A DNA stretch of 64,000 bases, taken from the NCBI RefSeq assembly GCF_009789575.1, contig NZ_CP046908.1:4679001-4743000 (forward strand). The letters are read 5' to 3'. The stretch's first letter is position 1. Each line of letters opens with the position of its first letter. The notes beneath the pieces were generated by a model. It saw only the letters and a program-made list of their open reading frames with translations. It did no database searches and had not been told where the DNA came from. This document shows positions 1-15,694 of the stretch, in pieces. The translations under genes were made by a program, and so were the position numbers. The stretch is from Stappia indica (lineage in GTDB: Bacteria; Pseudomonadota; Alphaproteobacteria; Rhizobiales; Stappiaceae).

Positions 1-1586
1 ACATCCTCAAGGACTTCGTCGAGGAGGACGGGCGCAGTTTCACCCTCACCCTGCGCAAGGGACACAAGTGGTCGGACGGCCACCCGTTCACCTCCGAGGA
101 CATCCGCTTCTGGTACGAGGATGTTGCCTCGAATGCCGAGTTGCAGCCTTCCGGCCTGCCGCAGTTCATGCTGGCTGGCGGGAAGCCGCCGATCTTCGAG
201 GTGATCGACGAGACGACCGTCCGCTTCACGTGGGAGGCTCCCAACCCGCTGTTCAAGCCGGAGCTAGCCAAGTCGCGCCCGCCCTTCATCTATCGTCCGG
301 CGCACTACCTGAAGCAGTTCCACGCGCGCTACGGGGATGCGGAGAAGATCCAGAAGCTGGCGGAAGAGCGCAAGCTGCGCAGCTGGGCCGCGCTCTTCAA
401 CAAGATGGACGACATGTATGATGCCCGGAACCCGGAGCTGCCGAGCCTGCAGCCATGGGTGAGGCTGGTGGATGACAGCGAGCGGCGGTTCGTGCTGCAC
501 CGCAATCCGTTCTACCATCGGATCGACTCCGCAGGGCAGCAGCTGCCCTATCTCGACAGCGTCGTGATGACGGTGGCCGACGGCAAGATTATCGCCGCGA
601 AGACCCAGGCCGGCGAGGCCGACCTGCAGGCGCGCAATATCGGCTTTTCCGACATCACGATCCTCAAGCGCGGTGAAAAGCTCGGCCGGTTCGAGACGTA
701 TCTGTGGCCGATCAGCAAGGGCTCGCAGATTTCCCTGCAGCCCAACCTGACGGTCGCCGATCCGGTCTGGCGCAAGCTGATGCTGGATACGAGGTTCCGC
801 CGTGCGCTCTCGCTCGGCATCGACCGCGAGATGATCAACAAGGTGCTTTATCTCGGGCTTGCCACGCCGGGTAACGACACGGTGCTCGAGCAGAGCCCGC
901 TGTATCGCCAAGAGTACCGCGATCTCCATGCCCAGTTCGACCCCGAGGAGGCGAACCGCCTGCTGGACGAGATCGGCCTGACGGAGCGCCGGGGCGACGG
1001 GGTGCGGCTGATGCCGGACGGCCGGCCGCTCGAGATCATCGTCGAGGCGACCGGCGAGAGCCAGGAAGAGCTCGATGCACTGGAACTCGTCGGCGAGACC
1101 TGGCGCGAGATTGGTGTGAAGCTGTTCGCCAAGCCGAGCCAGCGCGACATCATCCGCGAACGGGCGCTGTCGGGTCTGCTGGTCATGTCGGTGTGGGCGG
1201 GTTTCGAGAACGGGATTCCGACCTCGGAAATGCCGCCGGAGGACTTTGCGCCGGTGCGCAGCGACTTCCTGTCCTGGTCGCGTTGGGGCAATTGGTACGA
1301 GACCGACGGTCAGACCGGAGAAAAACCGGACTGGGAGCCGGCGATCCGGCTGACGCAGCTCTACGACGACTGGCTGAAGTCCAGCTCCGAGGAGGAGCGG
1401 ACGGAAATCTGGCACGAGATCCTGAAGATCCATGCCGAGGAGACCATTCATATCGGGCTGGTGTCGGAAGTCCGCCAGCCGGTTGTGGTGAAGGGCCTCG
1501 GCAATGTGCCGAAGGAAGGCATCTACGGCTGGGATCCCGGTGCCCAGTTCGGCATTCACCGAATGGACGAGTTCTACCGGAAGTGA
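1..1586 (+). CDS. ABC transporter substrate-binding protein, family 5 (5' end missing)
   Basis: Periplasmic solute-binding protein of the peptide/nickel/opine (SBP_bac_5) family. The gene enters the window already open; its frame starts at base 3, so the signal peptide lies outside. The conserved family segment WSDGHPFTSEDI is near the visible N-terminus, followed by the usual mixed alpha/beta body ending in DEFYRK. About 527 residues are visible, so the full protein is probably above 600, large for the family. The stop lies about 40 bases before a DppB-type permease, so it heads the operon. The ligand cannot be read from the sequence; a peptide, an opine or a sugar is possible. Confidence 0.9.
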   Translation, partial: ILKDFVEEDGRSFTLTLRKGHKWSDGHPFTSEDIRFWYEDVASNAELQPSGLPQFMLAGGKPPIFEVIDETTVRFTWEAPNPLFKPELAKSRPPFIYRPAHYLKQFHARYGDAEKIQKLAEERKLRSWAALFNKMDDMYDARNPELPSLQPWVRLVDDSERRFVLHRNPFYHRIDSAGQQLPYLDSVVMTVADGKIIAAKTQAGEADLQARNIGFSDITILKRGEKLGRFETYLWPISKGSQISLQPNLTVADPVWRKLMLDTRFRRALSLGIDREMINKVLYLGLATPGNDTVLEQSPLYRQEYRDLHAQFDPEEANRLLDEIGLTERRGDGVRLMPDGRPLEIIVEATGESQEELDALELVGETWREIGVKLFAKPSQRDIIRERALSGLLVMSVWAGFENGIPTSEMPPEDFAPVRSDFLSWSRWGNWYETDGQTGEKPDWEPAIRLTQLYDDWLKSSSEEERTEIWHEILKIHAEETIHIGLVSEVRQPVVVKGLGNVPKEGIYGWDPGAQFGIHRMDEFYRK

Positions 1587-1625
1587 CGTGAGAATGGCGC
1601 TGCGGGGCGCTGGGGGAACCGCTTG

Positions 1626-2645
1626 ATGCTCTACTATATCGTGCGCCGGGTGTTGACGATGATCCCGACGCTGTTCGTGATCAGCCTGCTGACATTCGTC
1701 ATCATCGAGCTTCCGGCCGGTGACTATATTTCCAACCAGATTGCCGCTCTGCGGGCGACCGGAGAAAGCGCATCCATCGCCAAGCTCGAGTTCCTGCGGG
1801 CGGAGTTCGCGCTCGACCGGCCGTTCCTGGAGCGCTACCTGATCTGGATCGGCCTTTGGCCGGGGGTGCACGGCTTCGACGGGCTGCTGCAGGGCAATTG
1901 GGGCTGGTCTTTCGAATACGAGAAGCCGGTGTCCGAAGTGGTGGGGCCGACCCTGCCGCTGACCATCGTGCTGAACACGGCGACGATCCTGTTCGTCTAT
2001 GTCGTCTCCTTCCCGATCGGCATCTATTCGGCGACCCGGCAATATTCCTGGGGTGACTACGGCTTCACGTTCATCGGCTATATCGGGCTTGCGACGCCGA
2101 ACTTCCTTCTCGGCCTGATCATGCTGTATTTCGCCAATCTCTGGTTCGGCCTCTCGGTCGGCGGGCTCATGGCGCCGGAATATATCGGCCAGCCCTGGAG
2201 CGTGGGGAAGGCGCTGTCGGTGCTGGCGCACCTGATCGTGCCGACGGTGGTCATCGGAACCGCCGGCACGGCGGCGATGATCCGGCGGCTGCGGGCGAAC
2301 CTTCTGGATGAACTCCACAAGCAATACGTGACGACCGCGCGCGCCAAGGGCCTGCGCGAATCCCGCCTCCTGGTGAAGTATCCGCTGCGCATGGCGCTCA
2401 ATCCGTTCATTGCCGATATCGGCAACCTGATCCCTTCGCTCGTCTCCGGCTCGGTCATCGTGTCGGTCGTGCTCAACCTGCCGACCGTCGGACCGGTGCT
2501 GCTGAATGCCCTTCAGTCGCAGGACCAGTTTCTCGCCGGCTTCATCCTGCTCTTCGTCGCGGTCCTGACGCTGATCGGCATGCTGGTATCCGACCTGCTG
2601 CTGGCGGTCCTCGACCCGCGCATCCGGCTTGGGGGGAAGGCGTGA
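1626..2645 (+). CDS. ABC transporter permease, DppB type
   Basis: First inner-membrane permease of a peptide/nickel-type ABC importer, 339 residues. An N-terminal membrane segment (about residues 9-29) is followed by a periplasmic stretch and five more hydrophobic segments. The cytoplasmic EAA loop that contacts the ATPase is recognisable as VTTARAKGLRES in the second half. The ATG at 1626 is preferred over the TTG just before it (1623); a G-rich ribosome-binding stretch lies upstream. The next gene overlaps the stop in a TGATG arrangement, indicating translational coupling. No ATPase gene follows, so the ATPases must lie upstream of the window or elsewhere. Confidence 0.92.
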   Translation: MLYYIVRRVLTMIPTLFVISLLTFVIIELPAGDYISNQIAALRATGESASIAKLEFLRAEFALDRPFLERYLIWIGLWPGVHGFDGLLQGNWGWSFEYEKPVSEVVGPTLPLTIVLNTATILFVYVVSFPIGIYSATRQYSWGDYGFTFIGYIGLATPNFLLGLIMLYFANLWFGLSVGGLMAPEYIGQPWSVGKALSVLAHLIVPTVVIGTAGTAAMIRRLRANLLDELHKQYVTTARAKGLRESRLLVKYPLRMALNPFIADIGNLIPSLVSGSVIVSVVLNLPTVGPVLLNALQSQDQFLAGFILLFVAVLTLIGMLVSDLLLAVLDPRIRLGGKA

Positions 2646-3805
2646 TGAGCATGCGCAACGAGCCCGAGCACTACGTCAATCCGGATGTGTTCAACCCGTC
2701 TCACGCAGAATCGCTGACCCCGGAGCAGGAGCGCTACTACCAGGCCTCGCAGTGGACGATCATGTGGTGGAAGTTCCGCCGCCATCGGGTCGCCGTGTGG
2801 TCGGGCGTGATCCTCATCCTGTTCTACCTGTGCGTCCCGTTTGCCGAGATCATCGCTCCCTACTCGCCGAACCAGCGCTCCAACGACCACCTCTACGCGC
2901 CGCCGCAGACGCTGCGCCTGTTCCACGAAGGCTCCTTCGTCGGCCCGTTCGTCTACGGCCTGAAGGCGGATATCGACCTGGAGACGGTGCGCTGGGTCTA
3001 TACCGAAGACCGGCAGGACGTGCAGCCGCTGCGCTTCCTCTGCTTCGGACCGCAATACAGGTTCTGGGGCCTTTTCGATGCGAGCTTCCACCTTGTCTGT
3101 CCGGCGAAGGAGGGGACGCTCTACCTCCTCGGCACCGACCGATTGGGGCGGGATGTGTTCTCCGGCCTCGTATACGGTGCGCGCCTGTCGCTCACCGTCG
3201 GCCTGATCGGTGTGACCATCTCCATCGTGCTGGGACTGTTCTTCGGCGGGCTGGCCGGCTTTTTCGGCGGCCTTATCGACAGCGCGATCCAGCGGGTGAT
3301 CGAGATCCTGCGCTCTCTCCCGGAATTGCCCCTGTGGATGGCGCTGTCGGCCGCTCTTCCGGTCACCTGGTCGCCCGTTTGGATTTATCTCGGCATCACG
3401 GTGATCCTCGGCCTGCTCGACTGGCCCGGTCTTGCGCGTGCCGTGCGCTCCAAGCTGCTGGCTTTGCGCGAGGAGGAATATGCCAAGGCCGCACTGCTGA
3501 TGGGGGCGAAGCCTTCGCGCGTCATCCGCAAGCACCTGCTGCCGGGCTTCACGAGCCACATCATCGCATCGGCCTCCCTGTCGATCCCGGCGATGATCCT
3601 CGGCGAGACGGCGCTGTCCTACCTCAACCTCGGTCTGCGCCGGCCTGCGGTGTCCTGGGGCGTCCTGCTCAACGAGGCGCAGGATATCTCGGTTGTGGTC
3701 ATCTATCCCTGGCTGATGGCGCCGGTCGTTCCCATCATCATCGTCGTGCTCGCATTCAATTTCCTTGGCGATGGTTTGCGCGACGCCGCCGACCCGTATA
3801 AGTGA
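2645..3805 (+). CDS. ABC transporter permease, DppC type, with enlarged periplasmic loop
   Basis: Second permease of the importer, 386 residues against roughly 280-300 for ordinary DppC proteins. The first membrane segment is near residues 50-72. The conserved LLGTDRLGRD motif comes only at about residue 161, so about 85 extra residues, including two cysteines (LCFGPQ and LVCPAKE), form a periplasmic insertion. The EAA loop (EEYAKAALLMGAKPS) is intact. The start overlaps the preceding stop by one base. The insertion probably contacts the large binding protein, but that is inference; it is typical of one DppC subgroup rather than a defect. Confidence 0.92.
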   Translation: MSMRNEPEHYVNPDVFNPSHAESLTPEQERYYQASQWTIMWWKFRRHRVAVWSGVILILFYLCVPFAEIIAPYSPNQRSNDHLYAPPQTLRLFHEGSFVGPFVYGLKADIDLETVRWVYTEDRQDVQPLRFLCFGPQYRFWGLFDASFHLVCPAKEGTLYLLGTDRLGRDVFSGLVYGARLSLTVGLIGVTISIVLGLFFGGLAGFFGGLIDSAIQRVIEILRSLPELPLWMALSAALPVTWSPVWIYLGITVILGLLDWPGLARAVRSKLLALREEEYAKAALLMGAKPSRVIRKHLLPGFTSHIIASASLSIPAMILGETALSYLNLGLRRPAVSWGVLLNEAQDISVVVIYPWLMAPVVPIIIVVLAFNFLGDGLRDAADPYK

Positions 3806-3863
3806 TGCCCGGCAGGGGGCGTTGAAAGACCGGCCGCCACGCCGGCGAACAGGAAGACAAGGC

Positions 3864-4457
3864 ATGTCCAAGAACGCATCGACCGCCGACGGCTGGGACG
3901 AGGAATATCGGCGCGGGCGCTGGGCGTTCCTTCGCGATCTGCCCGAAAGCGGTCGTTACGGCATCATCGGTATGTGGCTCGCCCTCAACGGCTCGCTCGA
4001 CCGGGTGCTGGACATCGGGTGCGGCGAAGGCTTGCTGTATGAGCGCCTTCAGCCGATGGGCATCCAGCGTTATGTCGGCGTCGATCTCGCGCCGGCCGCG
4101 CTCGGCATCGCCAACGTGGACCCGGAGATCGCGTCTCTGCGCGCCGGCGACCTGCATACGTTCGCACCGGAGCAGGGCGAGGCCTTCTCCGCCATCGTCT
4201 TCAACGAGGTGCTGCACTTTTCCGACGATCCGGCAGCGGCGGTGGCGCGCTACGTGCCGTTCCTGGCGCCGGGTGGCGTGATCGCCATTTCGATGTACTC
4301 GCCGAAGCGGCTGGAGTCGGGCGCCAACCGCCTGATCGCCCGCCTGTGGGAAGCAACCGACGGACCGGACTGGGAAGTCCTCGACGATTACCGCCTGACC
4401 TCCGACAAGAAGAACGTCACCTGGCGGCTGCGGCTGCTCAGGCCTGCGGCTGGCTGA
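3864..4457 (+). CDS. class I SAM-dependent methyltransferase
   Basis: Soluble methyltransferase of 197 residues. Motif I (VLDIGCGEG, about residues 47-55) and the acidic end of strand 2 (VGVDLAP) form the SAM site; VFNEVLHF is the motif IV region. The start is the ATG at 3864, 6 bases after a purine-rich ribosome-binding stretch (aggaagac); an earlier in-frame start would run back into the permease. Its last 20 bases overlap the 3' end of the opposite-strand deacetylase-like gene, so the two converge. Proximity to glycosyltransferases makes a glycan or lipid acceptor plausible, but the substrate is unknown. Confidence 0.85.
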   Translation: MSKNASTADGWDEEYRRGRWAFLRDLPESGRYGIIGMWLALNGSLDRVLDIGCGEGLLYERLQPMGIQRYVGVDLAPAALGIANVDPEIASLRAGDLHTFAPEQGEAFSAIVFNEVLHFSDDPAAAVARYVPFLAPGGVIAISMYSPKRLESGANRLIARLWEATDGPDWEVLDDYRLTSDKKNVTWRLRLLRPAAG

Positions 4458-5247
4458 CCGGCGGCAGGCCTCGCTCCATGCGCGTCACGTCCAGCAGCTC
4501 GGATATGCGGGTGAAGCGGGCGCCGGGATGCGCACTCAGGATAGCGAACGTCCTCTCCAGGAACTCGAAGCAGGCATCGTTCTGCGCCAGGTGATGGGAG
4601 AGGACGCCCAGCGGCTCGGCCGGGTTCGTGCGTCTTCGCGCCAGATGGTAGTCGAAGCGCAGGCCGGCCGACTGCCAGCCGATGAAGCGTCGCTCCTTCT
4701 TCCACTTGATCATGTCCACATGCGTCTGCACCTGCACAAGTGCGCGCGGATGGAACTGGGTGAAGGTCGAAAGGCCGGAAAGTCCGGCTTCCGCAAGGCG
4801 CGCTGAGATGCGTGGTGCGATACGGTTCCACGGCGGCACCATGACCGGCACGAAGCGCGGGCCGAACAGGCCCGCCAGGCGCCTGTTGCCACGGGCAAGA
4901 AGGGCAAGCGCCTCGTCGGGATCGCGCCGACGGCCGAACTCCGCGGCCTTTTCTCCCCGCGACTTGTCCTGAAAGTTGCGGTGCTCGTATCCGTGCTGAA
5001 GGACCGAGGCGAAGCGCTCGCCGGAAAGCCGATCTGCAAGAGCCTTTGTCGCATTCGCGGGGATCACTGCGAGTGCGACCTCGATCTCGTGGGTGTTTGC
5101 GATCTGCAGCAGCCGCTCAAGCGCCGGGGTGGGCTCGATTGCATCGTCGTCGCGCCACCAGACCGGCACGTCGTGGCCGCGTTCGGCGAACCAGTCGAGA
5201 TGCCGGTTGAGACCGTCCCGAAAGTCGCGAAAACCGGCCTCGCTCAT
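4438..5247 (-). CDS. polysaccharide deacetylase-like protein
   Basis: A 269-residue protein of the NodB/CE4 deacetylase superfamily. WWRDDDA (about residues 29-35) supplies the Asp pair expected of motif 1, HGYEHRN (about 105-111) supplies two metal-binding histidines (motif 2, an H-x3-H pattern), and PPWNR (about 158-162) resembles motif 3. No signal peptide is visible, which argues for a cytoplasmic enzyme acting on a sugar nucleotide or lipid-linked glycan rather than on exported polymer. It overlaps the upstream glycosyltransferase by 4 bases (ATGA), so it is the last gene of a coupled leftward set. True activity (deacetylation or another amide cleavage) is not settled. Confidence 0.75.
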   Translation of the reverse strand: MSEAGFRDFRDGLNRHLDWFAERGHDVPVWWRDDDAIEPTPALERLLQIANTHEIEVALAVIPANATKALADRLSGERFASVLQHGYEHRNFQDKSRGEKAAEFGRRRDPDEALALLARGNRRLAGLFGPRFVPVMVPPWNRIAPRISARLAEAGLSGLSTFTQFHPRALVQVQTHVDMIKWKKERRFIGWQSAGLRFDYHLARRRTNPAEPLGVLSHHLAQNDACFEFLERTFAILSAHPGARFTRISELLDVTRMERGLPPVSQPQA

Positions 5248-6398
5248 CGGTGGGCCTCCAGCGCATCCACCAGTATATCGGCAGCTGTCTCCGCCCCGCC
5301 GAACCGAACCGGGATATCGCGTTGCGGCAGGCTCAATGCGTCGTCGGCGGCCCTTGCAAGGGCCTCAGGGGTCAAGGTCTTTTCCGGCACTGCGACGGCA
5401 CGGCCATGGCGCACCAGCGCATCCGCTCGCTGCTGCTGCTCCGTTTCCTTGATCTGGGCGAAGGGCACGAGCACGCTGGGCACGCCGGCCCGTAGAATGT
5501 CCAGAACGGTGTTGTAGCCCGCCTGGCTGATCGAAAGGCGGGCCCGTTCGAGCAACGATGGAAAGTCTCGCCGAGCCCGCTCGACAATGATGTTCTCTCC
5601 GCCCTGTCTGGACAGCCCCACAAAGCTCTCCCCGTCGATGTCATGGCCGGCGAGCAGCCGCCAGCGACACTCGCCGGCAAGGCGGGAAAGGGCAGGAGCG
5701 TTCAGCGCAGCCCTGAGCAGTCCGATGCCGACGGCGCCGCCGCCGCAGGAGACAATGACCTCGTCGCGGCCGTCATCGCCGGGGGCGTCTCTACCGCCCG
5801 TGCCGGTCTCGGCAAAGCCCGTATAGCGCAGCAGATGCGACACGCGGTCGGCGAAGGGAAAGCTGTCTTCCAGCCGGATGAAGGACGGGTCGGAGTGGAT
5901 GAGGACAAGATCGTAGGCGGCCAGCGCCCGCTCGGCCATTTCCTCTTCCTTCCAGAGCTCCTGCTTTCGCACCAGAATGTCGCGGATGGAGGAGGAGATG
6001 AGCGGCGGGCGGGACTGCGCCCTCGCGGTGTCGACCAGACTTTGCATCTCGAACGCGAAGGGGCGCCGCCCGAACGGCCATGTTTCAGTGAGCAGAAGGT
6101 CGAACGGCCGAGCCTGAAAGGCGTCCAGAGTTGCTTGGCTGCGAGCCGTCTTCCACGCCTCGTCGATCTCGTGCCCCTCCGGTGTCAGGAAGGTCTTGAA
6201 GCGCGCGTCCTGTGCCCTCACCGGCGGCAGTTCGACGATCTCGATGCCCGTCGTGTCGAGCAGCGGCGGAAGCCGGTTCCCGGTTGCCAGCGTCACCGAG
6301 ACACCGCGCGCTGCGAGCGCGCGGCCGATGGCGGCAGCACGCAGCGCGTGGCCGGTGCCGAGCAGGTGCTGGACATGGATGAAGGCGGATCGTGTCAT
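5244..6398 (-). CDS. glycosyltransferase, MurG/GT28-like fold
   Basis: A 384-residue GT-B glycosyltransferase. The N-terminal GTGHALRAAAIGRAL matches the acceptor-side glycine loop of MurG-like enzymes. The C-terminal SQAGYNTVLDILRAGVPS matches the nucleotide-sugar-binding half. It shares the GYNT segment with the glycosyltransferase at 8848-10068, and both resemble the predicted glycosyltransferases of COG4671. Four-base overlaps with both neighbours show a tightly coupled operon. No membrane segment is obvious. The sugar donor and acceptor are not known. Confidence 0.8.
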   Translation of the reverse strand: MTRSAFIHVQHLLGTGHALRAAAIGRALAARGVSVTLATGNRLPPLLDTTGIEIVELPPVRAQDARFKTFLTPEGHEIDEAWKTARSQATLDAFQARPFDLLLTETWPFGRRPFAFEMQSLVDTARAQSRPPLISSSIRDILVRKQELWKEEEMAERALAAYDLVLIHSDPSFIRLEDSFPFADRVSHLLRYTGFAETGTGGRDAPGDDGRDEVIVSCGGGAVGIGLLRAALNAPALSRLAGECRWRLLAGHDIDGESFVGLSRQGGENIIVERARRDFPSLLERARLSISQAGYNTVLDILRAGVPSVLVPFAQIKETEQQQRADALVRHGRAVAVPEKTLTPEALARAADDALSLPQRDIPVRFGGAETAADILVDALEAHR

Positions 6399-7522
6399 TG
6401 CGGCGAAGCGGTAGCGCGCAGGGCGAAGTTGCGCAAGGCTTGCTCCAGAAGGGCATCGAGACTGGAGGCACCGCTGGCCAGCGTGTGCCGTTCGCGGATG
6501 TGGTCGCGGGCAGCAAGCCCCATGTCCGCCGCGCGAGCGGGATCCGACACAAGCGTCGCGAGATTTTCCGCGAAAGCTGCGGCGTTTCCCTCACTCGACA
6601 GAAGTCCGGTCCTTCCATGGGCGACGATGTCGGGCACGCCGAACGTGTCGCCTCCCACAATGGCAAGGCCGGCCGCCTGGGCCTCGAGGAAGACGAGGCC
6701 GAATGCCTCGCGGATCGCCGGCCAGACGAAGATGTCGTGGGACGCGCAAAGGCCCGGGATGTCTTCTCCCGTAACTGCGCCCGTGAAGGTGACCGGATGG
6801 CGGGCGAACAGCGCCTCGACCTCCGCCCTGCAAGGCCCGTCACCGGCAACGGTGAGGGCGAAACGGGATGAGTCAGGCAGTCGGTCCAGCGCATCGGCGA
6901 GCAGGCGATAGGAGGCGAGCTTCGCTCCCTCGCGCATCATGCCGATGGCAAGCAGCCGGATGGGCTCACCCTCACGGCGCGGGATACGGGAGGCCTGCAG
7001 GAACCGGCTTGCATCGAGAAACGGGGCAAGGACCGCGAGGCGTTCCGCGGGAACGACCGCGGCAAGGCATTCCCTGTCGGCCCTGTGCATGGCCGCAACC
7101 AGATCGGCGCGGGCGAGTGCCGCATCTGCCGCGGCAAAGCCATAGGCCCATTCGCCCGTCTTGCGCTTCGGGGCGCGGCTGGCCTCGACGACGACATAAG
7201 GGATGCCCAGCCGCGAAGCTATCGCCGGGCCGATCCAGTCCGGGGCCTTGTGGTAGAGATGATAGGTCAGGAAGAGGTCGGGGCGGTAACCTGACACCTC
7301 CCACGAGGAGAGAACACGTTCCGCCTCTACGTGTGCGGCCTGCTCCACCTCCTGCTGTACCTCGGCGCCGCCGGTTGCCCTCCATGACCGAAACCGTGTT
7401 GCGACCGTCACCTCGTGGCCCGCTGCTTCCAGCGCCTGGACGATCAGCCTGCCCATGGTCCGGTCGCCGGACGGCACCGGATCGTCGAGCGGTTTCATCG
7501 GAGCTGTGAAGGCGACGCGCAT
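6395..7522 (-). CDS. glycosyltransferase family 4 (GT-B)
   Basis: A 375-residue retaining GT4-type glycosyltransferase. The donor-binding E-x7-E motif is visible as EAFGLVFLE, followed by GVPDIVAHGRTG, typical of the UDP-sugar side. The start is set at MRVAFTAPM (7522), the expected N-terminal beta strand; the open frame runs about 90 residues further upstream but that part is low-complexity Arg/Ala/Gly-rich and overlaps the neighbouring gene. Its stop overlaps the next gene by 4 bases. It probably adds one sugar of the glycan made by this cluster; the acceptor is unknown. Confidence 0.85.
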   Translation of the reverse strand: MRVAFTAPMKPLDDPVPSGDRTMGRLIVQALEAAGHEVTVATRFRSWRATGGAEVQQEVEQAAHVEAERVLSSWEVSGYRPDLFLTYHLYHKAPDWIGPAIASRLGIPYVVVEASRAPKRKTGEWAYGFAAADAALARADLVAAMHRADRECLAAVVPAERLAVLAPFLDASRFLQASRIPRREGEPIRLLAIGMMREGAKLASYRLLADALDRLPDSSRFALTVAGDGPCRAEVEALFARHPVTFTGAVTGEDIPGLCASHDIFVWPAIREAFGLVFLEAQAAGLAIVGGDTFGVPDIVAHGRTGLLSSEGNAAAFAENLATLVSDPARAADMGLAARDHIRERHTLASGASSLDALLEQALRNFALRATASPQ

Positions 7523-7542: not shown

Positions 7543-8784
7543 TTAAGAGGCTCGCACCCGCTCCTTCAGAAGGGGGGCAAATCGCGCCGCCAGCCGGTCG
7601 AGGCCCGGGTCCGTCGAAAAGCGTCGACGGACGTCGTCGGAGGCGGCACGGCCAAGCCGCTCGCGCAGAGCCGGGTCGGCTATGAGCGAGGCCAGCGCAG
7701 CGCGCAAGCGCTCGCGATCCCCCGGCGGCACCAGGAGACCGGTCTTTCCATCGCGAATGAGCTCGGGGATTGCCGAGACATCGGTGGCGAGGCAGCACAG
7801 GCCCATCGCCTGGGCCTCCATCAGCACGTTGGGCAGGCCGTCGCGGTCGCCCGACTTCGCCACCTTCGAGGCGAGGACGAAGAGGTCCGCACGCGCAGTG
7901 GCCTCGATCACGTCTTCGCGCGGTCGCGCCCCGCGCCAGGTGACGCGGTCGGAGATACCGAGGGAGCCGGCGAGATCGGCCAGCCGGGTCGCCTGCTCGC
8001 CGCCGCCGATATGCTCGAAATGCCAGTCAAGTCCCTCCGGCAGGGCTGCCAGCGCCGCCAGAAGATCGTCGTAGCCCTTCTTCTCCACGGCTCTGCCCAC
8101 GGAGAGAATGCGGACCGGCCCGGCTTGCCCGCCATCGCCCTTGCCGTAGTCATCGCGGCCGGGGAACGGGGTAAAGTCCAGCCCGTGATAAACCAGCTCC
8201 AGCTTGCCCGGCTGCGCGCAGAGCGAGCGAAGATGGTCGAGGTTGACACGGGTGCAGGTGACGCCCCATGCGGCGTCGTCGAGCTTCACCCGCAGGTCCC
8301 ATTCCTCGCTGGTCCAGATGTCCTTGGCATGGGCGGAAAACGACCAGCCGCGGCCCGAAAGGTGAGCCGCATATCGCGCTACCGAACAGGGCGTGTGTAG
8401 GTAGTGGGTGTGGATCCAGGCGATGTCGCCGGGGAGTTCATGTGCGAAGACGCAGGCCTGAGCCCAGCGACGCTGGCGGTTGGCATTCGGTTCCTTGGCG
8501 AAGTCGGCCATGAACAGGGCGTGGGCATCGCGGTAGGTCGGCTGCCGTTCGGCCCAGCGTTTTGCCCGGGCGACGCGCGCGGGATCATCCTTCACATATT
8601 CCGGCAGATAGAGCACTTCGGCCGAGATCTGCCGGTGCACTTCGTGGATGAAAGGGTCGTAGGGCTGGCGCAGGGCGACGATCAACTGGCCGATCCCGCG
8701 GCGCTCCAGGCCGAGGGTCTCCTGCGCGATGAAAGTCTCCGAAAGACGTGGATACCCTTTTACGACAACGGCGATACGGGACAT
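7543..8784 (-). CDS. glycosyltransferase family 4, colanic/exopolysaccharide-type
   Basis: A 413-residue GT4 enzyme beginning with the strand IAVVVKGYPRLSETFIAQE, a signature of exopolysaccharide glycosyltransferases related to the colanic acid WcaL/AmsK group. IHTHYLHTP and SFSAHAKDIW mark the acceptor half; DGLPNVLMEAQAMGLCC carries the donor-binding glutamates, and GKTGLLVPPGD follows. It lies 20 bases upstream of the next leftward gene. Presence of two GT4 and two MurG-like enzymes suggests a short oligosaccharide or glycolipid rather than a large capsule locus, since no polymerase or flippase is seen nearby. Confidence 0.85.
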   Translation of the reverse strand: MSRIAVVVKGYPRLSETFIAQETLGLERRGIGQLIVALRQPYDPFIHEVHRQISAEVLYLPEYVKDDPARVARAKRWAERQPTYRDAHALFMADFAKEPNANRQRRWAQACVFAHELPGDIAWIHTHYLHTPCSVARYAAHLSGRGWSFSAHAKDIWTSEEWDLRVKLDDAAWGVTCTRVNLDHLRSLCAQPGKLELVYHGLDFTPFPGRDDYGKGDGGQAGPVRILSVGRAVEKKGYDDLLAALAALPEGLDWHFEHIGGGEQATRLADLAGSLGISDRVTWRGARPREDVIEATARADLFVLASKVAKSGDRDGLPNVLMEAQAMGLCCLATDVSAIPELIRDGKTGLLVPPGDRERLRAALASLIADPALRERLGRAASDDVRRRFSTDPGLDRLAARFAPLLKERVRAS

Positions 8785-8847: not shown

Positions 8848-10068
8848 TCAGGCGCGCGCGGAAGCGAGTTCCCGGACGGCGGCGCTACGCTGCGCGAGGA
8901 TGCGCTCCACCCGGTCGCCGATCACGTCGAGACCGCCGAGCAGGTTGTCGATGCCGGCGGCGGAGGGGGGAGCGAGCCAAGGCAGTTCCGCCAATGCGTC
9001 GATCATCTTGTCGACGTCCGGGTAGGCGTCGATCGGCAGCACCTTCAAAAGACCGATGGTCTCGGCTCTTGTGGCCCGGATCGACTGCTCGCGGCGCGGA
9101 ACGACGCGCGGCACCAGGAGCGTCGGCTTGTCGAAGGACAGGATCTCGCAGAACGTGTTGTAGCCGCCCATGCCGACGATGGCCTTGGCACCGGCCATGT
9201 AGGGCTCGATGGTCGGCAGGAAGCGCAGGATATGCACGTCGCGCAGCGATTCTGCCCGCGCCAGGAACTCCGCTGCGGCCTGTGCCGGCATGAACGGGCC
9301 GAGGACGATCAGGGCGGGGAAGAGCGGTTGCGCGCGGGATTCGTAGGCGCGCATTACCCAGTCGACCATTTCGACGCCGTCGCCGCCGCCGCCCGGCGTG
9401 ACAAGGATGTAGGGCTCGTCGTCGAAGGGCAGGGGCTCGGTGATTCGTGCGTCGGCCGGCACGTCGCGGCGCAGATAGCCGGTGTTCACCGCCTTCGCGT
9501 GGACATTGGCCGAAAGGCCCATTCCCGCCAGCGGGTCATGCAGGTCGGGTGGGCCGTAGATCCAGATTTCGTCGTAGAGGCTCTCCAGTGCCGGATCGAC
9601 GTTCTTGCGCGTCCATTCCTCGCGCAGCACGGTCGGATCGTCCATCACGTCGCGCAGACCCAGGATCAGGCGTGTGTTGCCGCGCTCCTTGAGCATCTCC
9701 AGCGTGCCGAGGATCTCGCCGCGCAGACCGAGCGGCTCCTTGTCGACGATCAGGATGTCAGGGTCGAACACCTTGGCCGTATGCTCGATGATCGAGGTCC
9801 GGATCGCGAGAATGTGCTCGATGTTGAGCGAGAGCGACAACGGCGTGTATTCGCCGTTGCGCAGCTTGATTACACCGGGGATGCGCACGAAGTCGACGCG
9901 CGAGCGGAACTCGAAGCTGCCGATGATCGGAGAGCCCGACAGGATCAGCACGGACATGTCGGAAAAGCGGCGGGTCAGCGCATGTGCGATGGTGCGGCAC
10001 CGTCGCAGATGACCGAGCCCGAAGGAATCATGGCTGTAGATCAGCACTTTCGGGGCGCTATTGGTCAT
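8848..10068 (-). CDS. predicted glycosyltransferase, COG4671-like
   Basis: First gene of the leftward glycan set, 406 residues. The N-terminus SHDSFGLGHLRRCRTIAHAL is the glycine-histidine acceptor loop of MurG-like enzymes; the C-terminal half has IVGMGGYNTFCEILS followed by PTLLVPR, the nucleotide-sugar side. The same fold and GYNT segment recur in the gene at 5244-6398, so the cluster holds two paralogous enzymes. It is separated by 63 bases from the next gene and by 198 bases from the divergent ABC gene, so its promoter lies in that 198-base region. Activity is uncharacterised. Confidence 0.8.
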   Translation of the reverse strand: MTNSAPKVLIYSHDSFGLGHLRRCRTIAHALTRRFSDMSVLILSGSPIIGSFEFRSRVDFVRIPGVIKLRNGEYTPLSLSLNIEHILAIRTSIIEHTAKVFDPDILIVDKEPLGLRGEILGTLEMLKERGNTRLILGLRDVMDDPTVLREEWTRKNVDPALESLYDEIWIYGPPDLHDPLAGMGLSANVHAKAVNTGYLRRDVPADARITEPLPFDDEPYILVTPGGGGDGVEMVDWVMRAYESRAQPLFPALIVLGPFMPAQAAAEFLARAESLRDVHILRFLPTIEPYMAGAKAIVGMGGYNTFCEILSFDKPTLLVPRVVPRREQSIRATRAETIGLLKVLPIDAYPDVDKMIDALAELPWLAPPSAAGIDNLLGGLDVIGDRVERILAQRSAAVRELASARA

Positions 10069-10179: not shown

Positions 10180-10209
10180 TTGTAGCGGTTTTGGCGGGCT
10201 GCGTTATGA
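10180..10209 (+). promoter_or_regulatory. candidate sigma-70-like promoter of the cyclic-nucleotide cassette
   Basis: In the divergent intergenic region a TTGTAG (10180-10185) and TTATGA (10204-10209) are 18 bases apart, close to -35/-10 spacing, and point toward the ABC gene whose ATG is at 10267. This is a match by eye in an AT-richer patch, not a mapped start. Confidence 0.35.
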
Positions 10210-10266
10210 TACGCGCGAGACCTGCCGGATGGTGAACAGGCCCGCGACCCGATAACGCGACCGACG

Positions 10267-12861
10267 ATGGAAAAAAGCCTCTTCAAGTTCATCTGGCGAT
10301 ACAGCGCCCGTCAGCAACTGACGATCCTGCTCATTACGGTGATCGCCTATCCGGTCACCTATGTGCTGCTGGAGCTTCCGAAGCTCATCGTCAACGATGC
10401 GATTCAGGGCGAAAACTTCCCGCGTGAGGTCTATGGGCTCGAGTTCGATCAGGTGTCTTACCTGGTCGTGTTGTGCCTGGCCTTTCTCGGTCTGGTGATT
10501 CTATCCAACGGCATCAAGCTTGCCTTGAACGTCTACAAGGGCCGGCTCGGCGAGCGCATGTTGCGCCGTCTGCGATTCGAGCTGTTCCAGCGCGTCCTGC
10601 GCTTCCGCCTGCCGCACTTCAAGAAGGTCAGCTCCGGCGAGATCATCCCTATGATCACCTCGGAGGTCGAGGATGTCGGCGGCTTCATCGGCGAGGCGGT
10701 GGCACTTCCCGCCTATCAGGGCGGCATGCTGGCCGTGCAGATCGGCTTCATCTTCATGCAGGATCCGCTGCTCGGACTGGCAGCGATCTCCTCCTATCCG
10801 ATGCAGGCCTATGTCATCCCGAAGCTGCAGAGGCGGGTCGTCCTGCTGTCGCGCCAACGCGTACGCAATGTACGGGTGATCGCCGACAAGATTGGTGAGA
10901 GCATCGGCGGTGTGTCGGAAATTCATGCCAACGACTCATCTGCTTGGCATTCTGCGGATATTTCCGAGCGTCTCTACACCAACTACCAGATCCGCTTCAA
11001 GATCTTCAATTGGAAGTATTTCATCAAGTTTCTGAACAACTTCATGAACCAGTTGACGCCGTTCCTTTTCTATCTGATCGGTGGCTGGCTGGTGATCGAA
11101 GGTGAGCTGTCGATCGGCGCGCTGCTGGCCGTCATCGCTGCGTACAAGGATCTCGCAGGTCCCTGGAAGGAGCTGCTCGCCTATTACCAGATGGTGGCGG
11201 ATGTCGAGGTGAAGTACCAGACGGTGGTCGAGAATTTCGATCCCGCCGACATCTATCCGGTTACGCGCCTGACAGACGAGAGCGCGGATACGCAGCTGGC
11301 CGGCGATCTGGTGATGCGCAGCGTCAGCTTCTCCGGTGGAGCCGCGGGGCAGGAAGTGTTCGATGTCTCGTTGACCGTGAAGGCCGGTGTGCATGCGGCT
11401 GTCGCTGGGCCGGATGGGTCCGGCCGCACTGAAGTGCTCCAGCTCGCGGCTGGTTTGCTGGGTGCGACAAGCGGACGGGTGGAGATAGGCGGGCACAATC
11501 TCGACAATCTGAGCGAGGCGGTGCTTGGCCGTCAGATCGCCTATGTCGGCCCTTCGGTACATGTGTGGACCGGCACCGTACGCGACAACATTCTCTATGG
11601 CCTCCGCCACCGGCCATTGCGCCCGCCCGAACGGGAAGGGGATGACAAGGCAAGGCACGCCCGCCGGCTGGCCGAGGCGCGAGCAACGCAGAACCCGGAA
11701 TACGACATCCAGGCGGAATGGGAAGACTTCGAGGCTGCCGGTGTCGATACGGTCGACGCTCTGGATGCCCGTGCGCTCGAACTGATCGAGATGACCGGCC
11801 TTGCCGCCGACGTGTTCCGGATGGGCTTGCAGTCGCCCATCGATCCGGCGCGCTACCCGGAGTTCGCCGACCGCGTGCTTGCCGTGCGCAGGGCGCTTGC
11901 CGACAGGGTTGCCGGCGACGGCCGCCTCGCGGCGATGGTCGAACTCTGGGATGTCGAGCGCTTCAACAATTCCGCCAGTCTTGCCGAAAACCTGTTGTTC
12001 GCGATGCCCGTGGAACCGACCCTCGGCGTCGATACCCTGGCGTCGGATCCGGATGTCGCCGCGGCGCTTGAAGAGACGGGGTTGCGGGATCGGCTTGTCG
12101 AGATCGGCCTGAAGATCGCCGGCACGATGGTCGAGCTGTTCGCAAATGTCAGCGACGATTCCGGCTTGCTCGGCGACTACTCCTTCATCACGCTCGACGA
12201 GTTGCCGGAATTCGACAGGATTGTGCGCATCTCTCGCCTCGAATCCTCGAAGGGGCAACTGCGCGGCCCCGACAAGGAGCGGCTGATCGGTCTGGCCTTC
12301 AAGCTGATTCCCGCCCGTCACCGCCTCGGTGTCCTCGACGATGCCATGCGAGATGAGATCGTCGCGGCACGTGCGGCCTTCCATAAGCGCCTCAATGGCG
12401 ACCAGAGCCGCTTTGTCGTGTTCGACCGCGACAGCTTCATCGCGCCGATGTCGATCGAGGACAATCTTCTGTTCGGCCGTCCGCGCGTCGACCGGCGCGA
12501 TGCGCGCGAGAAGATCGACGGGCTGATCCGCTCGATCGTCGACGAGATGGAACTGCGCCGCCCGATCGTGCGCGCCGGCCTCGATTTCCATGTCGGTGTC
12601 GCGGGGTCGCGCCTTTCCACCGGTCAGCGCCGGCGCGTCGCGCTGGTGCGGGCGTTGATGAAGAACGCCCCGATCACCATTCTCGACGACACGGCAAGCA
12701 GCGGCAGCGACGATGACAAGGCGCTTCGCTCCTCCATCCGCCGGGCGCTCAAGGGGCGGATGCTGCTGTTCGGCGCGCCCAATTTGATCGTGGCGGGCGA
12801 GTTCGACCATAGTATCGTGATGAACCAGGGACGCGTCGTGGATGAGGAAGCTGCCTCATGA
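10267..12861 (+). CDS. ABC exporter-type membrane protein with aberrant ATPase domain
   Basis: An 864-residue fused membrane/ATPase protein. The N-terminal half (about residues 1-330) has the hydrophobic segments and linkers of a type-IV exporter. The C-terminal ATPase region is unusual. Walker A (381-388) reads GPDGSGRT, with Arg387 in place of the catalytic Lys. The Q-loop glutamine is missing (YVGPSV at 426-431). The signature LSTGQ (783-787) is intact, Walker B ends in Asp807 followed by Asp808 rather than Glu, and the H-loop His is absent (FGAPN at 835-839). About 400 residues separate Walker A from the signature instead of roughly 100. Three NILYG/NLLF-type segments lie at about 441, 575 and 733. 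It heads a cassette with cyclic-nucleotide genes. Role unknown: slow exporter, sensor or regulated channel-like protein. Confidence 0.85.
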   Translation: MEKSLFKFIWRYSARQQLTILLITVIAYPVTYVLLELPKLIVNDAIQGENFPREVYGLEFDQVSYLVVLCLAFLGLVILSNGIKLALNVYKGRLGERMLRRLRFELFQRVLRFRLPHFKKVSSGEIIPMITSEVEDVGGFIGEAVALPAYQGGMLAVQIGFIFMQDPLLGLAAISSYPMQAYVIPKLQRRVVLLSRQRVRNVRVIADKIGESIGGVSEIHANDSSAWHSADISERLYTNYQIRFKIFNWKYFIKFLNNFMNQLTPFLFYLIGGWLVIEGELSIGALLAVIAAYKDLAGPWKELLAYYQMVADVEVKYQTVVENFDPADIYPVTRLTDESADTQLAGDLVMRSVSFSGGAAGQEVFDVSLTVKAGVHAAVAGPDGSGRTEVLQLAAGLLGATSGRVEIGGHNLDNLSEAVLGRQIAYVGPSVHVWTGTVRDNILYGLRHRPLRPPEREGDDKARHARRLAEARATQNPEYDIQAEWEDFEAAGVDTVDALDARALELIEMTGLAADVFRMGLQSPIDPARYPEFADRVLAVRRALADRVAGDGRLAAMVELWDVERFNNSASLAENLLFAMPVEPTLGVDTLASDPDVAAALEETGLRDRLVEIGLKIAGTMVELFANVSDDSGLLGDYSFITLDELPEFDRIVRISRLESSKGQLRGPDKERLIGLAFKLIPARHRLGVLDDAMRDEIVAARAAFHKRLNGDQSRFVVFDRDSFIAPMSIEDNLLFGRPRVDRRDAREKIDGLIRSIVDEMELRRPIVRAGLDFHVGVAGSRLSTGQRRRVALVRALMKNAPITILDDTASSGSDDDKALRSSIRRALKGRMLLFGAPNLIVAGEFDHSIVMNQGRVVDEEAAS

Positions 12862-12946
12862 CGCAACTGCCCGCCATAACGGCCGTCCCCAACCTGACTG
12901 CGGAGGCGTACGGTACCGTTCCGGCCGCGCTCCCGAAGGAGGACAT

Positions 12947-13405
12947 GTGACCCTTGATGCGGAAGTCGATGCATTGCGGCGCGTGCCGCTTTTCCGGGGC
13001 ATCGACGCCACCAAGCTGAGGCTCCTGGCCTTCATCTCCGACCGGACGCGCTTCACGCCGGGCGAGCATCTTTGCGATCAGGGGGACGAGGGCGATTCCG
13101 CTTTCATCATCCTTGCCGGTGAGGCCGAGGTGCGTGTGAGCACCCCGGACGGCGAGCGTGCGGTGGCGCGACTGGGCGAGAATTCGATAGTTGGCGAGAT
13201 CGCGATCCTGTGCGACGTTCCCCGGACGGCCACTGTCGTAGCTACCAAGGAGATGGACGTCCTGACTGTCTCGAAGGATGATTTCCTCCGTCTCCTCAAG
13301 GAGTTCCCGGATATGTCGCTAGAGGTGATGCGCACGCTCGCCAAACGCCTGGATCGTACCACGCAGGATCTCGTTGCACTCCAGTCCTCGGGCGGCAGGG
13401 CGTGA
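12947..13405 (+). CDS. stand-alone cyclic-nucleotide-binding domain protein
   Basis: A 152-residue protein consisting of one cNMP-binding beta-barrel with no DNA-binding, kinase or membrane part. The phosphate-binding cassette is intact: GEIAILCDVPRTATV includes Glu84, which contacts the ribose, and Arg93, which contacts the cyclic phosphate, so it should bind cAMP or cGMP. The start is the GTG at 12947 just after GAAGGAGG; the ATG two bases before is closed at once by TGA. It follows the aberrant ABC gene by 85 bases and precedes the MBL-fold gene. It likely acts as a soluble receptor that modifies the ABC protein, but that is inference. Confidence 0.88.
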   Translation: MTLDAEVDALRRVPLFRGIDATKLRLLAFISDRTRFTPGEHLCDQGDEGDSAFIILAGEAEVRVSTPDGERAVARLGENSIVGEIAILCDVPRTATVVATKEMDVLTVSKDDFLRLLKEFPDMSLEVMRTLAKRLDRTTQDLVALQSSGGRA

Positions 13406-13424
13406 AGACGGGGATGGCCTTTCT

Positions 13425-14243
13425 GTGACCCTTTCGCTGAAGCTGTGGGGCGTGCGTGGATCGACGCCGACGCCCGGTCCCTCGACACTGCGCTACGGCG
13501 GAGAGACCACGTGTTTCGAGATTCATGCCGGTGGCGATATCTTTATGATCGACTGCGGATCAGGCGCACGCAATCTAGGAATGGAATTGCACGCCCGTCC
13601 GCCGGCGGAATACGACCTCTTCTTCACCCATACCCATCTCGACCATATTTGCGGGCTGCCGTTCTTCACGCCGGCCTATGACGACCGGTTTTCCATCAAC
13701 GCCTGGGCCGGGCATTTCGCCGACAGTTCGGGGTTGATGGACATCATCTGCCGCATCATGTCGCCGCCGATCTTTCCCGTGGCAGCCAACACGCTGCGGG
13801 CGGTGACGTTCCGCAATTTCCGCGCCGGTGGAGAGATCGAGCGCAAGGGGGCGGCACGCCTGACCACGGTTGCCCTCAACCATCCGGGCGGCGCGACGGG
13901 CTATCGGATCGCGCATGAGGGAAAATCGATCTGCGTGATCACCGATCACGAGCATGGCGACGCCGAGGTGGATCGGGCCGTCCGGCGCTTCGTGGAAGGC
14001 GCCGACGTGATGATCTACGACGCCATGTACACGGACGAGGAATATGCCCGTTATGCCGGTTGGGGACATTCCACCTGGCAGAAGGGTGTCGAGCTGGGGT
14101 TGGAGGCCGGGATCTCGCAGGTGGTTCTGCATCACCATGATCCGAGGCGGTCCGACGACGCGCTCGACGCTATCGGCGAGGAAGCCTCCCGCCGGCATCC
14201 CGGTGCCGTTGTCGGGCGTGAGGGGATGGTTGTCGTTCCGTGA
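13425..14243 (+). CDS. MBL-fold metallo-hydrolase, possible cyclic-nucleotide phosphodiesterase
   Basis: A 272-residue metallo-beta-lactamase-fold protein. The dinuclear metal motif H-x-H-x-D-H is complete (His69, His71, Asp73, His74 in THTHLDH), with later ligands in NHPGG, TDHEHGD and LHHHD. The WGVRGSTPTPGP opening with YGG-TTC is typical of a bacterial subfamily often annotated as hydrolases of phosphodiester or cyclic nucleotide bonds. The GTG at 13425 is preferred because homology-like sequence begins there; the in-frame ATG at 13374 would overlap the previous gene. Lying between a cNMP receptor and a cyclase, it is a good candidate to degrade the signal. Activity is inferred, not shown. 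Confidence 0.82.
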   Translation: MTLSLKLWGVRGSTPTPGPSTLRYGGETTCFEIHAGGDIFMIDCGSGARNLGMELHARPPAEYDLFFTHTHLDHICGLPFFTPAYDDRFSINAWAGHFADSSGLMDIICRIMSPPIFPVAANTLRAVTFRNFRAGGEIERKGAARLTTVALNHPGGATGYRIAHEGKSICVITDHEHGDAEVDRAVRRFVEGADVMIYDAMYTDEEYARYAGWGHSTWQKGVELGLEAGISQVVLHHHDPRRSDDALDAIGEEASRRHPGAVVGREGMVVVP

Positions 14244-14362
14244 GGCCGAACGCGACGCCCTTGCGCGGGTGACGACCGCAAGGCGATCGGGCCCGTCGAG
14301 GGAACGTGACGAGGCCGCGACAACACCTGTGCGTTAGGATCGTCCTGGCGAGGGGAGGGGCG

Positions 14363-15694
14363 ATGGCACGAGGCGGCAACAGAGGTGACCAAACGAGCGG
14401 CGCTCCCGCGCGTGTACGCTCGGAAATCGCTCTGCGCGAAACAGAGGCGGAGCGCCTGATCGGCTGGATCCAGCTGGCCATGGTGCTGTTCTTCGCGGCG
14501 CTTTACTCGCTCGCGCCTCGTGCGGAAGGGGGCGGTGGCTTCAATTTCGTGCCGCTGGCCCTTGGCGCCTATTTCCTGTTCACGATCCTGCGTGTGGCGC
14601 TGTCCTACCGGATAGTCCTGCCGTTCTGGTATCTGGTGATTTCGGTCATCGTTGACGTTGCCCTTTTGTGCGGGCTGATCTTCTCGTTCCACATCCAGTA
14701 CGCGCAACCGGCGACCTTCTATCTGAAGGCGCCGACGCTGATGTATCTGTTCCTGTTCATCGCGCTGCGGGCGCTGCGCTTCGAACCGCGTTTCGTGTTG
14801 ATCACAGGTCTCGTCGGGGCGCTCGGCTGGGGTGCGCTCGTCCTCTATGCCGTCCTCCAGGGCATGGGCTCCATGTCCATCACCCGCAACTACGTCGAGT
14901 ATCTGACGTCGAACGCGATCCTGATCGGCGCAGAGCTCGACAAGGTCATCGTCATTCTCGGGGTTACCCTGTGTCTCTCCGTCGCGCTCTACCGCGGGCG
15001 CAAGATGTTCTTCGAGGCTGTGCGCGACCACGCGGCCGCTCAGGACCTGAGTCGGTTCTTTGCGACTGAGGTGGCCCGTTCGATCACCGGCGCCGAGGAA
15101 GCGTTGACCGCGGGACAGGGAAGCCTACGGGACGCCGCCGTGATGATGGTCGATATCCGCGGCTTCACGCGTATCGCTGCCACCTTGCCGCCTGAGACGG
15201 TGATGATGGTCCTGTCTCGATACCAGGAAGCGGTGCTTCGCGTCATCGCCCGCCATGGCGGCGAGGTCGACAAGTTTCTGGGCGACGGGGTCTTGGCGAC
15301 GTTTGGTGCGGTGGCGCCCAGTCCGACAGCCGCGGCGGATGCGGTGCGGGCGGGCCTGGAACTTCCGCAGGTTTTCGCCGATCTGGCACCGGATCTGACG
15401 CTTGAGGGATGGCCTGAAGCCTTGCGGGCGGGGGCGGCCATTGCGTCCGGCCCGGTCACGGTCGGCGTGGTGGGCGCCGCCGGCAGGCTCGAGTTCACCG
15501 TCATTGGAGATGCAGTCAACCGAGCGGCAAAACTGGAGGACGCCAACAAGCAACAGGGCACCACCGTGCTGACGGATGCCGCCACCTATGCGGCTGCGGT
15601 GGCTCGGGGGTTGGCGGATTTCGGGCCGGAACTGCGCCCTTGCCAGGTCGTGTCCGGACTGTCCGAAAGAGCCGATCTCGTCGTTCTCGCATGA
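14363..15694 (+). CDS. membrane-bound class III adenylate cyclase
   Basis: A 443-residue protein with six predicted membrane helices (about residues 32-220) and a C-terminal class III cyclase domain. Both metal-binding aspartates are present (Asp264 in MVDIRGFT; Asp308 in FLGDGV), and adenine-specifying Lys304 and Asp383 (IGDAVN) point to ATP as substrate. Asn386 is present, but the transition-state arginine of the N-x3-R pair is Lys390, seen in some alphaproteobacterial cyclases. The ATG at 14363 directly follows a strong AGGGGAGGGG site. As last gene of the cassette it supplies the likely signal for the cNMP-binding protein. The six-helix membrane part may sense a lipid or membrane state. 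Confidence 0.88.
   Translation: MARGGNRGDQTSGAPARVRSEIALRETEAERLIGWIQLAMVLFFAALYSLAPRAEGGGGFNFVPLALGAYFLFTILRVALSYRIVLPFWYLVISVIVDVALLCGLIFSFHIQYAQPATFYLKAPTLMYLFLFIALRALRFEPRFVLITGLVGALGWGALVLYAVLQGMGSMSITRNYVEYLTSNAILIGAELDKVIVILGVTLCLSVALYRGRKMFFEAVRDHAAAQDLSRFFATEVARSITGAEEALTAGQGSLRDAAVMMVDIRGFTRIAATLPPETVMMVLSRYQEAVLRVIARHGGEVDKFLGDGVLATFGAVAPSPTAAADAVRAGLELPQVFADLAPDLTLEGWPEALRAGAAIASGPVTVGVVGAAGRLEFTVIGDAVNRAAKLEDANKQQGTTVLTDAATYAAAVARGLADFGPELRPCQVVSGLSERADLVVLA

What the first reader, a model, noticed from the sequence alone, without database searches (positions are those of the whole stretch)
10267..15694. Self-contained cyclic-nucleotide cassette around an aberrant ABC protein
Four co-directional genes make a complete loop: a membrane class III cyclase with ATP-specific residues (Lys304, Asp383), a one-domain cNMP receptor with intact Glu84/Arg93, an MBL-fold hydrolase with a full H-x-H-x-D-H site that could degrade the signal, and an ABC-type membrane protein with a damaged ATP site as the only evident output. 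Seen: motifs, order and spacing. Known: CNB and class III cyclase chemistry. Inferred: that cAMP gates or tunes the ABC protein. I know of no described function for this arrangement.
Basis: partly seen in the sequence, partly recalled or inferred. Interest (0 to 1): 0.78.

Follow-up and report, generated by a model that had tools for sequence, protein, structure and literature searches.

The report
cAMP-linked degenerate ABC protein, glycan locus
Many alphaproteobacteria carry a transporter-like membrane protein with a worn-out ATP engine, paired with a small cyclic-nucleotide receptor and usually accompanied by the same sugar-transferring enzymes, which suggests a second messenger acting directly on a cell-surface polysaccharide.

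Summary
Host: Stappia or near kin. The core is two genes: an ABC-exporter-derived protein with a degraded nucleotide-binding domain and a ~270-residue insert holding extra copies of the NBD helical segment, and the single-domain CNB protein. In 120 alphaproteobacterial loci the CNB is fused to the ABC (13) or encoded just downstream (102); 5 lack it. The family was found in 131 of 385 class genomes. None of 135 members keeps all six ATPase residues tested, while the CNB phosphate-binding Arg is kept in 132 of 132. MBL and cyclase are lineage-restricted additions. Four glycosyltransferases lie divergently upstream (at least one in 88 of 120 loci); one, GTd, is in 124 of 131 ABC-positive and 1 of 254 ABC-negative genomes, also where unlinked. 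The Sinorhizobium meliloti counterpart falls, by gene counting, in the published PPP surface-polysaccharide region. Best reading: a cyclic-nucleotide receptor controls a surface-glycan system through a transporter-like membrane protein. Ligand binding, contact and transport are untested.

The parts
10267..12861 (+). Pseudo-ABC: ABC-exporter-derived membrane protein (864 aa); TMD ~1-325, NBD first half ~345-445, insert ~446-715, NBD second half ~716-864
11602..12411 (+). Insert inside the NBD (about residues 446-715) with extra copies of the NBD Q-loop/helical segment
12947..13405 (+). Single-domain cyclic-nucleotide-binding protein (152 aa)
   Evidence: cNMP_binding 78.5 bits; Glu84 in 125 of 132 and Arg93 in 132 of 132 members
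13425..14243 (+). MBL-fold hydrolase (272 aa), possible cNMP phosphodiesterase
   Evidence: Lactamase_B_2 62.2 bits, PDEase_II 12.2 bits below its cut-off; HxHxDH kept in 24 of 24
14306..15694 (+). Membrane class III nucleotide cyclase (462 aa from GTG, 443 aa from ATG 14363)
   Evidence: Guanylate_cyc 40.9 bits; D264, K304, D308, T379, N386 and K390 each 16 of 16
8848..10068 (-). GTd, glycosyltransferase divergent from the ABC gene; co-occurs with the ABC across genomes
   Evidence: Glyco_tran_28_C 26.8 bits; 124 of 131 vs 1 of 254 genomes; 48% identical to the S. meliloti protein at the matching place
7543..8784 (-). GTc, family 4 glycosyltransferase
   Evidence: Glycos_transf_1 120 bits; in 86 of 120 loci
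6395..7522 (-). GTb, glycosyltransferase (start inferred from homology)
   Evidence: Glyco_trans_1_4 92.7 bits; in 79 of 120 loci; 38% identical to the Mesorhizobium counterpart
5244..6398 (-). GTa, MurG-like glycosyltransferase
   Evidence: Glyco_tran_28_C 50.5 bits; in 76 of 120 loci
4438..5247 (-). Deacetylase-like protein
   Evidence: No Pfam or NCBIfam match at E<=0.001; 37% identical to a protein annotated 'polysaccharide deacetylase family protein' in the Mesorhizobium locus; in 61 of 120 loci
141..3805 (+). Oligopeptide-type importer genes: substrate-binding protein and two permeases; part of the neighbourhood in some lineages
   Evidence: SBP_bac_5, BPD_transp_1, OppC_N; in 5 of 120 loci, an undercount because only about 8.5 kb on each side was fetched; on S. 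meliloti pSymB
3765..4457 (+). SAM methyltransferase
   Evidence: Methyltransf_23 51.7 bits; matched in 16 of 16 loci L031-L046

Best explanation
The core is a two-protein membrane switch derived from an ABC exporter. The ABC protein keeps an exporter's transmembrane domain but its nucleotide-binding domain has lost residues of the ATPase cycle and carries an insert made partly of extra helical segments. The partner CNB protein binds a cyclic nucleotide (most likely cAMP) and docks on the degenerate NBD/insert, so that ligand state rather than ATP hydrolysis sets the conformation of the membrane part. The output is a cell-surface polysaccharide or glycolipid built by the four co-conserved glycosyltransferases and the deacetylase-like protein: the switch gates or scaffolds its synthesis or export. 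In Stappiaceae and a few other groups a membrane class III cyclase and an MBL hydrolase joined the operon, probably as local source and sink of the ligand. Shown: gene order, fusions, conserved CNB ligand residues, ATPase-motif loss, repeat in the insert, co-occurrence with GTd. Inferred: ligand identity, docking, gating, glycan as output, role of MBL.
For: CNB fused in 13 and encoded downstream in 102 of 120 loci, 101 of the 102 within -20..+300 nt, median 31. Arg93 132/132, Glu84 125/132. Of 135 ABC proteins: Walker A Lys 64, next Ser/Thr 21, Q-loop Gln 21, Walker B Asp 34, Glu 70, His 35; none has all six, one has five, while the TMD is the best-conserved part (49 of 320 columns at >=95%, against 1 of 40 in the linker, 2 of 85, 10 of 270 and 8 of 149 in the NBD and insert). 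Insert repeats. Confident models with exporter fold. Insert and CNB distances correlate, r 0.72 over 70 loci, against 0.48 for TMD and CNB. GTs: at least one in 88, three or more in 80, all four plus deacetylase-like in 57 of 120 loci. GTd in 124 of 131 ABC-positive and 1 of 254 ABC-negative genomes. S. meliloti: passages of PMC10128002 report a surface polysaccharide (PPP) needing nine genes between smb21252 and smb21271, mutant smb21265 (glycosyltransferase family protein) with phazolicin MIC 0.18 vs 1.47 ug/mL, and depletion of adenylate cyclase cyaA insertions; a passage of PMC11387232 gives SM_b21272 as LacI family; in a pSymB record a 'glycosyltransferase family protein' and a LacI gene stand seven genes apart with the ABC and CNB genes between them.
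Against: No binding, contact, ATPase or transport data. The Walker A Lys survives in 64 of 135 members, Walker B Glu in 70 and the signature Ser in 76, so ATP binding may persist. 5 of 120 loci have no CNB nearby. 32 of 120 loci have no GT within the stretch fetched, and 7 ABC-positive genomes lack GTd. Co-occurrence was not corrected for relatedness and had no unrelated gene as control. Insert and GTd correlate even more (r 0.77), so correlation does not single out the CNB. The identity with smb21269/smb21270 is inferred from gene counting (the record has a second 'glycosyltransferase family protein' five genes from LacI), the passages seen do not name these two genes, and the 1021 record reads the ABC gene in two frames although the PPP work used that strain. 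cyaA there is smc00339, not a gene of this locus. HetC's CNB domain binds ppGpp and was not stabilised by cAMP (PMC10986499 passages). Lys390 in place of Arg could mean a weak cyclase.
Confidence: 0.5

Rival explanations
1. A working ATP-driven glycan or lipid flippase with unorthodox catalytic residues, merely tuned by the CNB protein, as in CNB-containing exporters such as HetC.
For: TMD and NBD folds are intact in the model; Walker A Lys in 64, Walker B Glu in 70, signature Ser in 76 of 135, one member with five of six residues. HetC needs both its ATPase residue and its CNB domain in vivo (PMC10986499 passages).
Against: None of 135 keeps all six residues; the Mg-coordinating Ser/Thr is kept in 21 and the Q-loop Gln in 21 of 135; the insert separates the two NBD halves.
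Confidence: 0.27
2. A pure regulatory scaffold that transports nothing: it holds glycosyltransferases at the membrane and switches them with the cyclic nucleotide.
For: Near-perfect co-occurrence with GTd even where unlinked; degenerate NBD.
Against: The TMD is the most conserved region, which fits a transport path or conserved helix packing better than a plain anchor.
Confidence: 0.17
3. A cyclase-effector defence system of the Pycsar kind.
For: PADLOC models PycTIR (CNB part, 65.4 bits) and PycC (71.5 bits) match at domain level.
Against: The CNB protein has no second domain in Pfam; a cyclase was found in only 11 of 120 family loci; the module recurs with glycan genes.
Confidence: 0.02

Closest known systems
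Type IV ABC exporters (MsbA, Sav1866, NdvA, TM287/288)
   Same: TMD and NBD fold; best sequence and structure matches
   Different: Degenerate catalytic residues, ~270-residue insert with extra helical segments, CNB partner
HetC of Nostoc (peptidase-containing exporter with a CNB domain; PMC10986499, passages seen)
   Same: CNB domain joined to an ABC exporter and required for its function
   Different: HetC has a C39 peptidase, needs its ATPase residue, and its N-terminal CNB binds ppGpp; here the CNB is a separate gene or C-terminal and keeps the cNMP phosphate-binding Arg
Heterodimeric exporters with one degenerate site (TM287/288, MsRv1273c/72c)
   Same: Degenerate nucleotide site
   Different: Those keep one canonical site in the dimer; no second exporter gene was seen next to this one in the window
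PPP locus of Sinorhizobium meliloti (PMC10128002, passages seen)
   Same: Matching GTs (48, 52 and 39% identical), ABC and CNB genes in the same place
   Different: In the S. meliloti stretch shown no MBL or cyclase gene follows; an FkbM methyltransferase does
Pycsar
   Same: Class III cyclase plus CNB domain
   Different: No effector domain; different neighbourhood

Membership tests
ABC exporter (type IV) | Exporter transmembrane domain and NBD fold | tested here: met
ABC exporter (type IV) | Intact Walker A, Q-loop, Walker B and H-loop residues | tested here: not met
   0 of 135 members have all six residues tested; window protein has R387, P429, D808, P838 and keeps T388, D807
ABC exporter (type IV) | ATP-driven transport | not testable with these tools
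   needs biochemistry
CNB domain receptor | Phosphate-binding cassette Glu and Arg | tested here: met
   Glu84 125/132, Arg93 132/132
CNB domain receptor | Binds cAMP or cGMP | not testable with these tools
   needs binding assay
CRP/Fnr transcription factor (name given in some S. meliloti records) | DNA-binding HTH after the CNB domain | tested here: not met
   152 aa, only cNMP_binding over cut-off
Class III nucleotide cyclase | Two metal Asp, substrate Lys, Asn | tested here: met
   D264, D308, K304, N386 16/16; roles recalled
Class III nucleotide cyclase | Transition-state Arg | tested here: not met
   K390 16/16; position recalled
Class II cAMP phosphodiesterase (PF02112, NF041851) | Profile score above curated cut-off | tested here: not met
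   12.2 of 23.7 bits and 37.6 of 400 bits
MBL-fold hydrolase | HxHxDH | tested here: met
   24 of 24
HetC-type exporter | C39 peptidase domain | tested here: not met
   only ABC_membrane and ABC_tran in Pfam
Pycsar | CNB-linked effector domain (TIR or TM) | tested here: not met
   no second domain in Pfam; PADLOC matches cover the CNB part only
PPP-type polysaccharide locus | Homologous glycosyltransferases beside ABC and CNB genes | tested here: met
   gene-number identity inferred
PPP-type polysaccharide locus | Makes a surface polysaccharide in Stappia | not tested
   no data
Insert as a known separate fold | Clear match to a solved fold | tested here: inconclusive

The most novel reading that the evidence does not exclude
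An ABC-exporter architecture has been turned into a cyclic-nucleotide-driven machine: ATP hydrolysis was lost, extra helical segments became a docking platform for a cAMP receptor, and cAMP directly gates a glycan flippase or polymerase in a widespread alphaproteobacterial system, with no transcription factor in between.
Probability: 0.2. Interest if true: 0.9.

Novelty: new variant of a known kind. Interest (0 to 1): 0.7.

Why it matters
If right, it links a second messenger to a cell-surface polysaccharide by a route other than transcription, in about a third of the sampled alphaproteobacterial genomes (131 of 385), through proteins that records name only 'ABC transporter', 'cyclic nucleotide-binding protein' or 'Crp/Fnr regulator'. 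It gives the uncharacterised PPP polysaccharide of a model symbiont two new candidate genes, and a natural series of degenerate ABC proteins for asking what an exporter fold does without its ATPase.

Tried and rejected

Dropped rows: two of 136 ABC ORFs (L130, L175) under 800 aa were left out of the motif counts; L047 and L048 are not in the counts; 114 of the 137 places and 6 of the 37 were fetched for neighbourhoods, and several stretches are cut by contig ends, so counts of neighbours are lower bounds.
Full report
What is there. The window lies in a 5.1-Mb single-contig genome whose nearest named relatives are Stappia (98% identity over the ABC protein). The four genes are real and in the order described. 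Two details change. The residue called Asp383 is not the substrate-selecting one; by alignment to the canonical motif (recalled) that position is Thr379, invariant in 16 sequences, whereas 383 is D10/N5/R1. Lys plus Thr is what I recall for class IIIb adenylyl cyclases. The cyclase also has Lys390 where the transition-state Arg is expected (recalled), in 16 of 16.

How conserved. In 16 named loci (L031-L046: Stappia, Hongsoonwoonella, Roseibium, a Tepidamorphaceae MAG and a MAG labelled Rhodobacteraceae) CNB and MBL follow the ABC in 16 and the cyclase in 14. In 25 genomes (own plus 24 relatives) a match to the cyclase at E<=1e-60 stands in 20; in one genome of the same genus (G003) and in two of the order (G026, G028) it lies on another contig than the ABC. 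Beyond this group the core shrinks to two genes. With a profile of the insert alone the ABC family was found in 131 of 385 genomes of the class and in 31 of 398 of a phylum sample, all 31 inside the same class. I fetched 120 places (114 of the 137, 6 of the 37). The CNB is fused to the ABC protein in 13, lies downstream on the same strand in 102 (101 of them within -20..+300 nt, median 31; the other at 618), and is missing in 5 (L186, L204, L207, L210, L213). MBL was found in 7 and cyclase in 11 of 120 at the thresholds.

The CNB protein. One domain only. The phosphate-binding Arg is kept in 132 of 132 and the Glu in 125 of 132 members, fused ones included. Thr after the Arg is common, which I recall as permitting cGMP as well as cAMP, so the ligand is open. 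In an S. meliloti record it is named 'Crp/Fnr family transcriptional regulator', although no DNA-binding domain was found in the window's protein.

The missed partner. Directly upstream and divergent lie four glycosyltransferases and a deacetylase-like gene. Among the 120 loci at least one GT is present in 88, three or more in 80, all four plus the deacetylase-like gene in 57. GTd alone was then sought in a class sample of the same size, 385 genomes with the same handles: present in 125, namely in 124 of 131 with the ABC and in 1 of 254 without it (Fisher p 3e-91, not corrected for relatedness, no unrelated gene as control). The single GTd-only genome (G065) is 86% complete. The 32 loci without a GT nearby lie in 29 genomes, of which 24 have GTd elsewhere or at a second copy; all 13 fused loci are among them, and all 10 of their genomes have GTd (counted by hand). 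Of the 7 ABC-only genomes, one has GTc at E<=1e-40 and six do not. Distances of insert, CNB and GTd correlate with each other (r 0.71-0.77 over 70 loci).

Link to a phenotype. In a Sinorhizobium meliloti pSymB record the order is importer genes, three GTs, methyltransferase, ABC, CNB, FkbM methyltransferase, LacI, with GTs 48, 52 and 39% identical to GTd, GTc and GTa. Passages of PMC10128002 describe an uncharacterised surface polysaccharide, PPP, needing nine genes between smb21252 and smb21271; mutants in smb21252 and smb21265 (a glycosyltransferase family protein) drop the phazolicin MIC from 1.47 to 0.18 ug/mL, and insertions in adenylate cyclase cyaA (smc00339) are depleted, the cyaA mutant itself changing little (0.74). 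A passage of PMC11387232 names SM_b21272 as LacI family. A 'glycosyltransferase family protein' and a LacI gene seven genes apart fit smb21265 and SM_b21272, which would make the ABC smb21269 and the CNB smb21270. This is inference by gene counting; a second gene of the same name stands five genes from LacI, and the two numbers are not named in the passages seen. A passage of PMC10315480 reports up-regulation of seven of the nine genes under predation. Against an easy reading, the ABC gene of the 1021 record is read in two frames, while 9 of 11 records checked, including the sister strain 2011, have it open.

Mechanism. Shown: order, fusions, CNB residue conservation, ATPase-motif decay, insert repeat, co-occurrence. 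Inferred: cyclic nucleotide binding, docking on the NBD/insert, control of glycan synthesis or export, local cAMP supply and removal by cyclase and MBL. I give 0.5 to the whole reading, 0.27 to a working but unorthodox transporter, 0.17 to a non-transporting scaffold.

Known or new. CNB domains joined to ABC exporters are known (HetC, PMC10986499 passages: required in vivo, binds ppGpp), and degenerate sites are known in heterodimeric exporters (listing). The combination seen here, family-wide ATPase decay, duplicated helical segment, separate CNB partner and glycan linkage, did not appear in the listings, which cover an open-licence library only.

Noticed in passing
L234:8696-10603 (G000:C1, roughly 2.4-4.3 kb before window position 1): A second class III cyclase, with HAMP and weakly matched Cache domains, stands next to the importer ATPase gene at the far end of the same neighbourhood.
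   Followed up: partly
L232 (S. meliloti 1021 pSymB) and L228 (strain R11): The ABC gene is read in two frames in these two of 11 Sinorhizobium records checked, and the CNB gene also in R11; strain 2011 and the others are open.
   Followed up: partly
L027 (G022:C1:1722663-1725217): In one genome of the same family the ABC protein is matched in two adjoining pieces (residues 1-457 and 461-857), an interrupted gene or a sequence error; G014 has one stop inside.
   Followed up: no
L048:9833-12028 (Paenibacillus turpanensis): An ABC exporter with ordinary-looking motifs carries a CNB domain at its C-terminal end, a possible model for the ancestral arrangement.
   Followed up: no
L047 (Granulosicoccaceae MAG, 3.4-kb contig): A partial relative of the ABC protein in a record labelled Gammaproteobacteria by name; may be a stray contig, as the phylum sample gave hits only in the window's class.
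   Followed up: no
L216, L219, L221 (G194): One genome carries three fused ABC-CNB paralogues.
   Followed up: no
L231:15028-19223 (Mesorhizobium pWSM1497): A DUF3095 protein, a nucleotide-sugar dehydrogenase and another class III cyclase follow the glycan genes; that cyclase is only 30% identical to the window's over 167 residues.
   Followed up: partly
window 10001-12000: G+C dips to 0.605, the lowest 2-kb block of the window, over the ABC gene.
   Followed up: no
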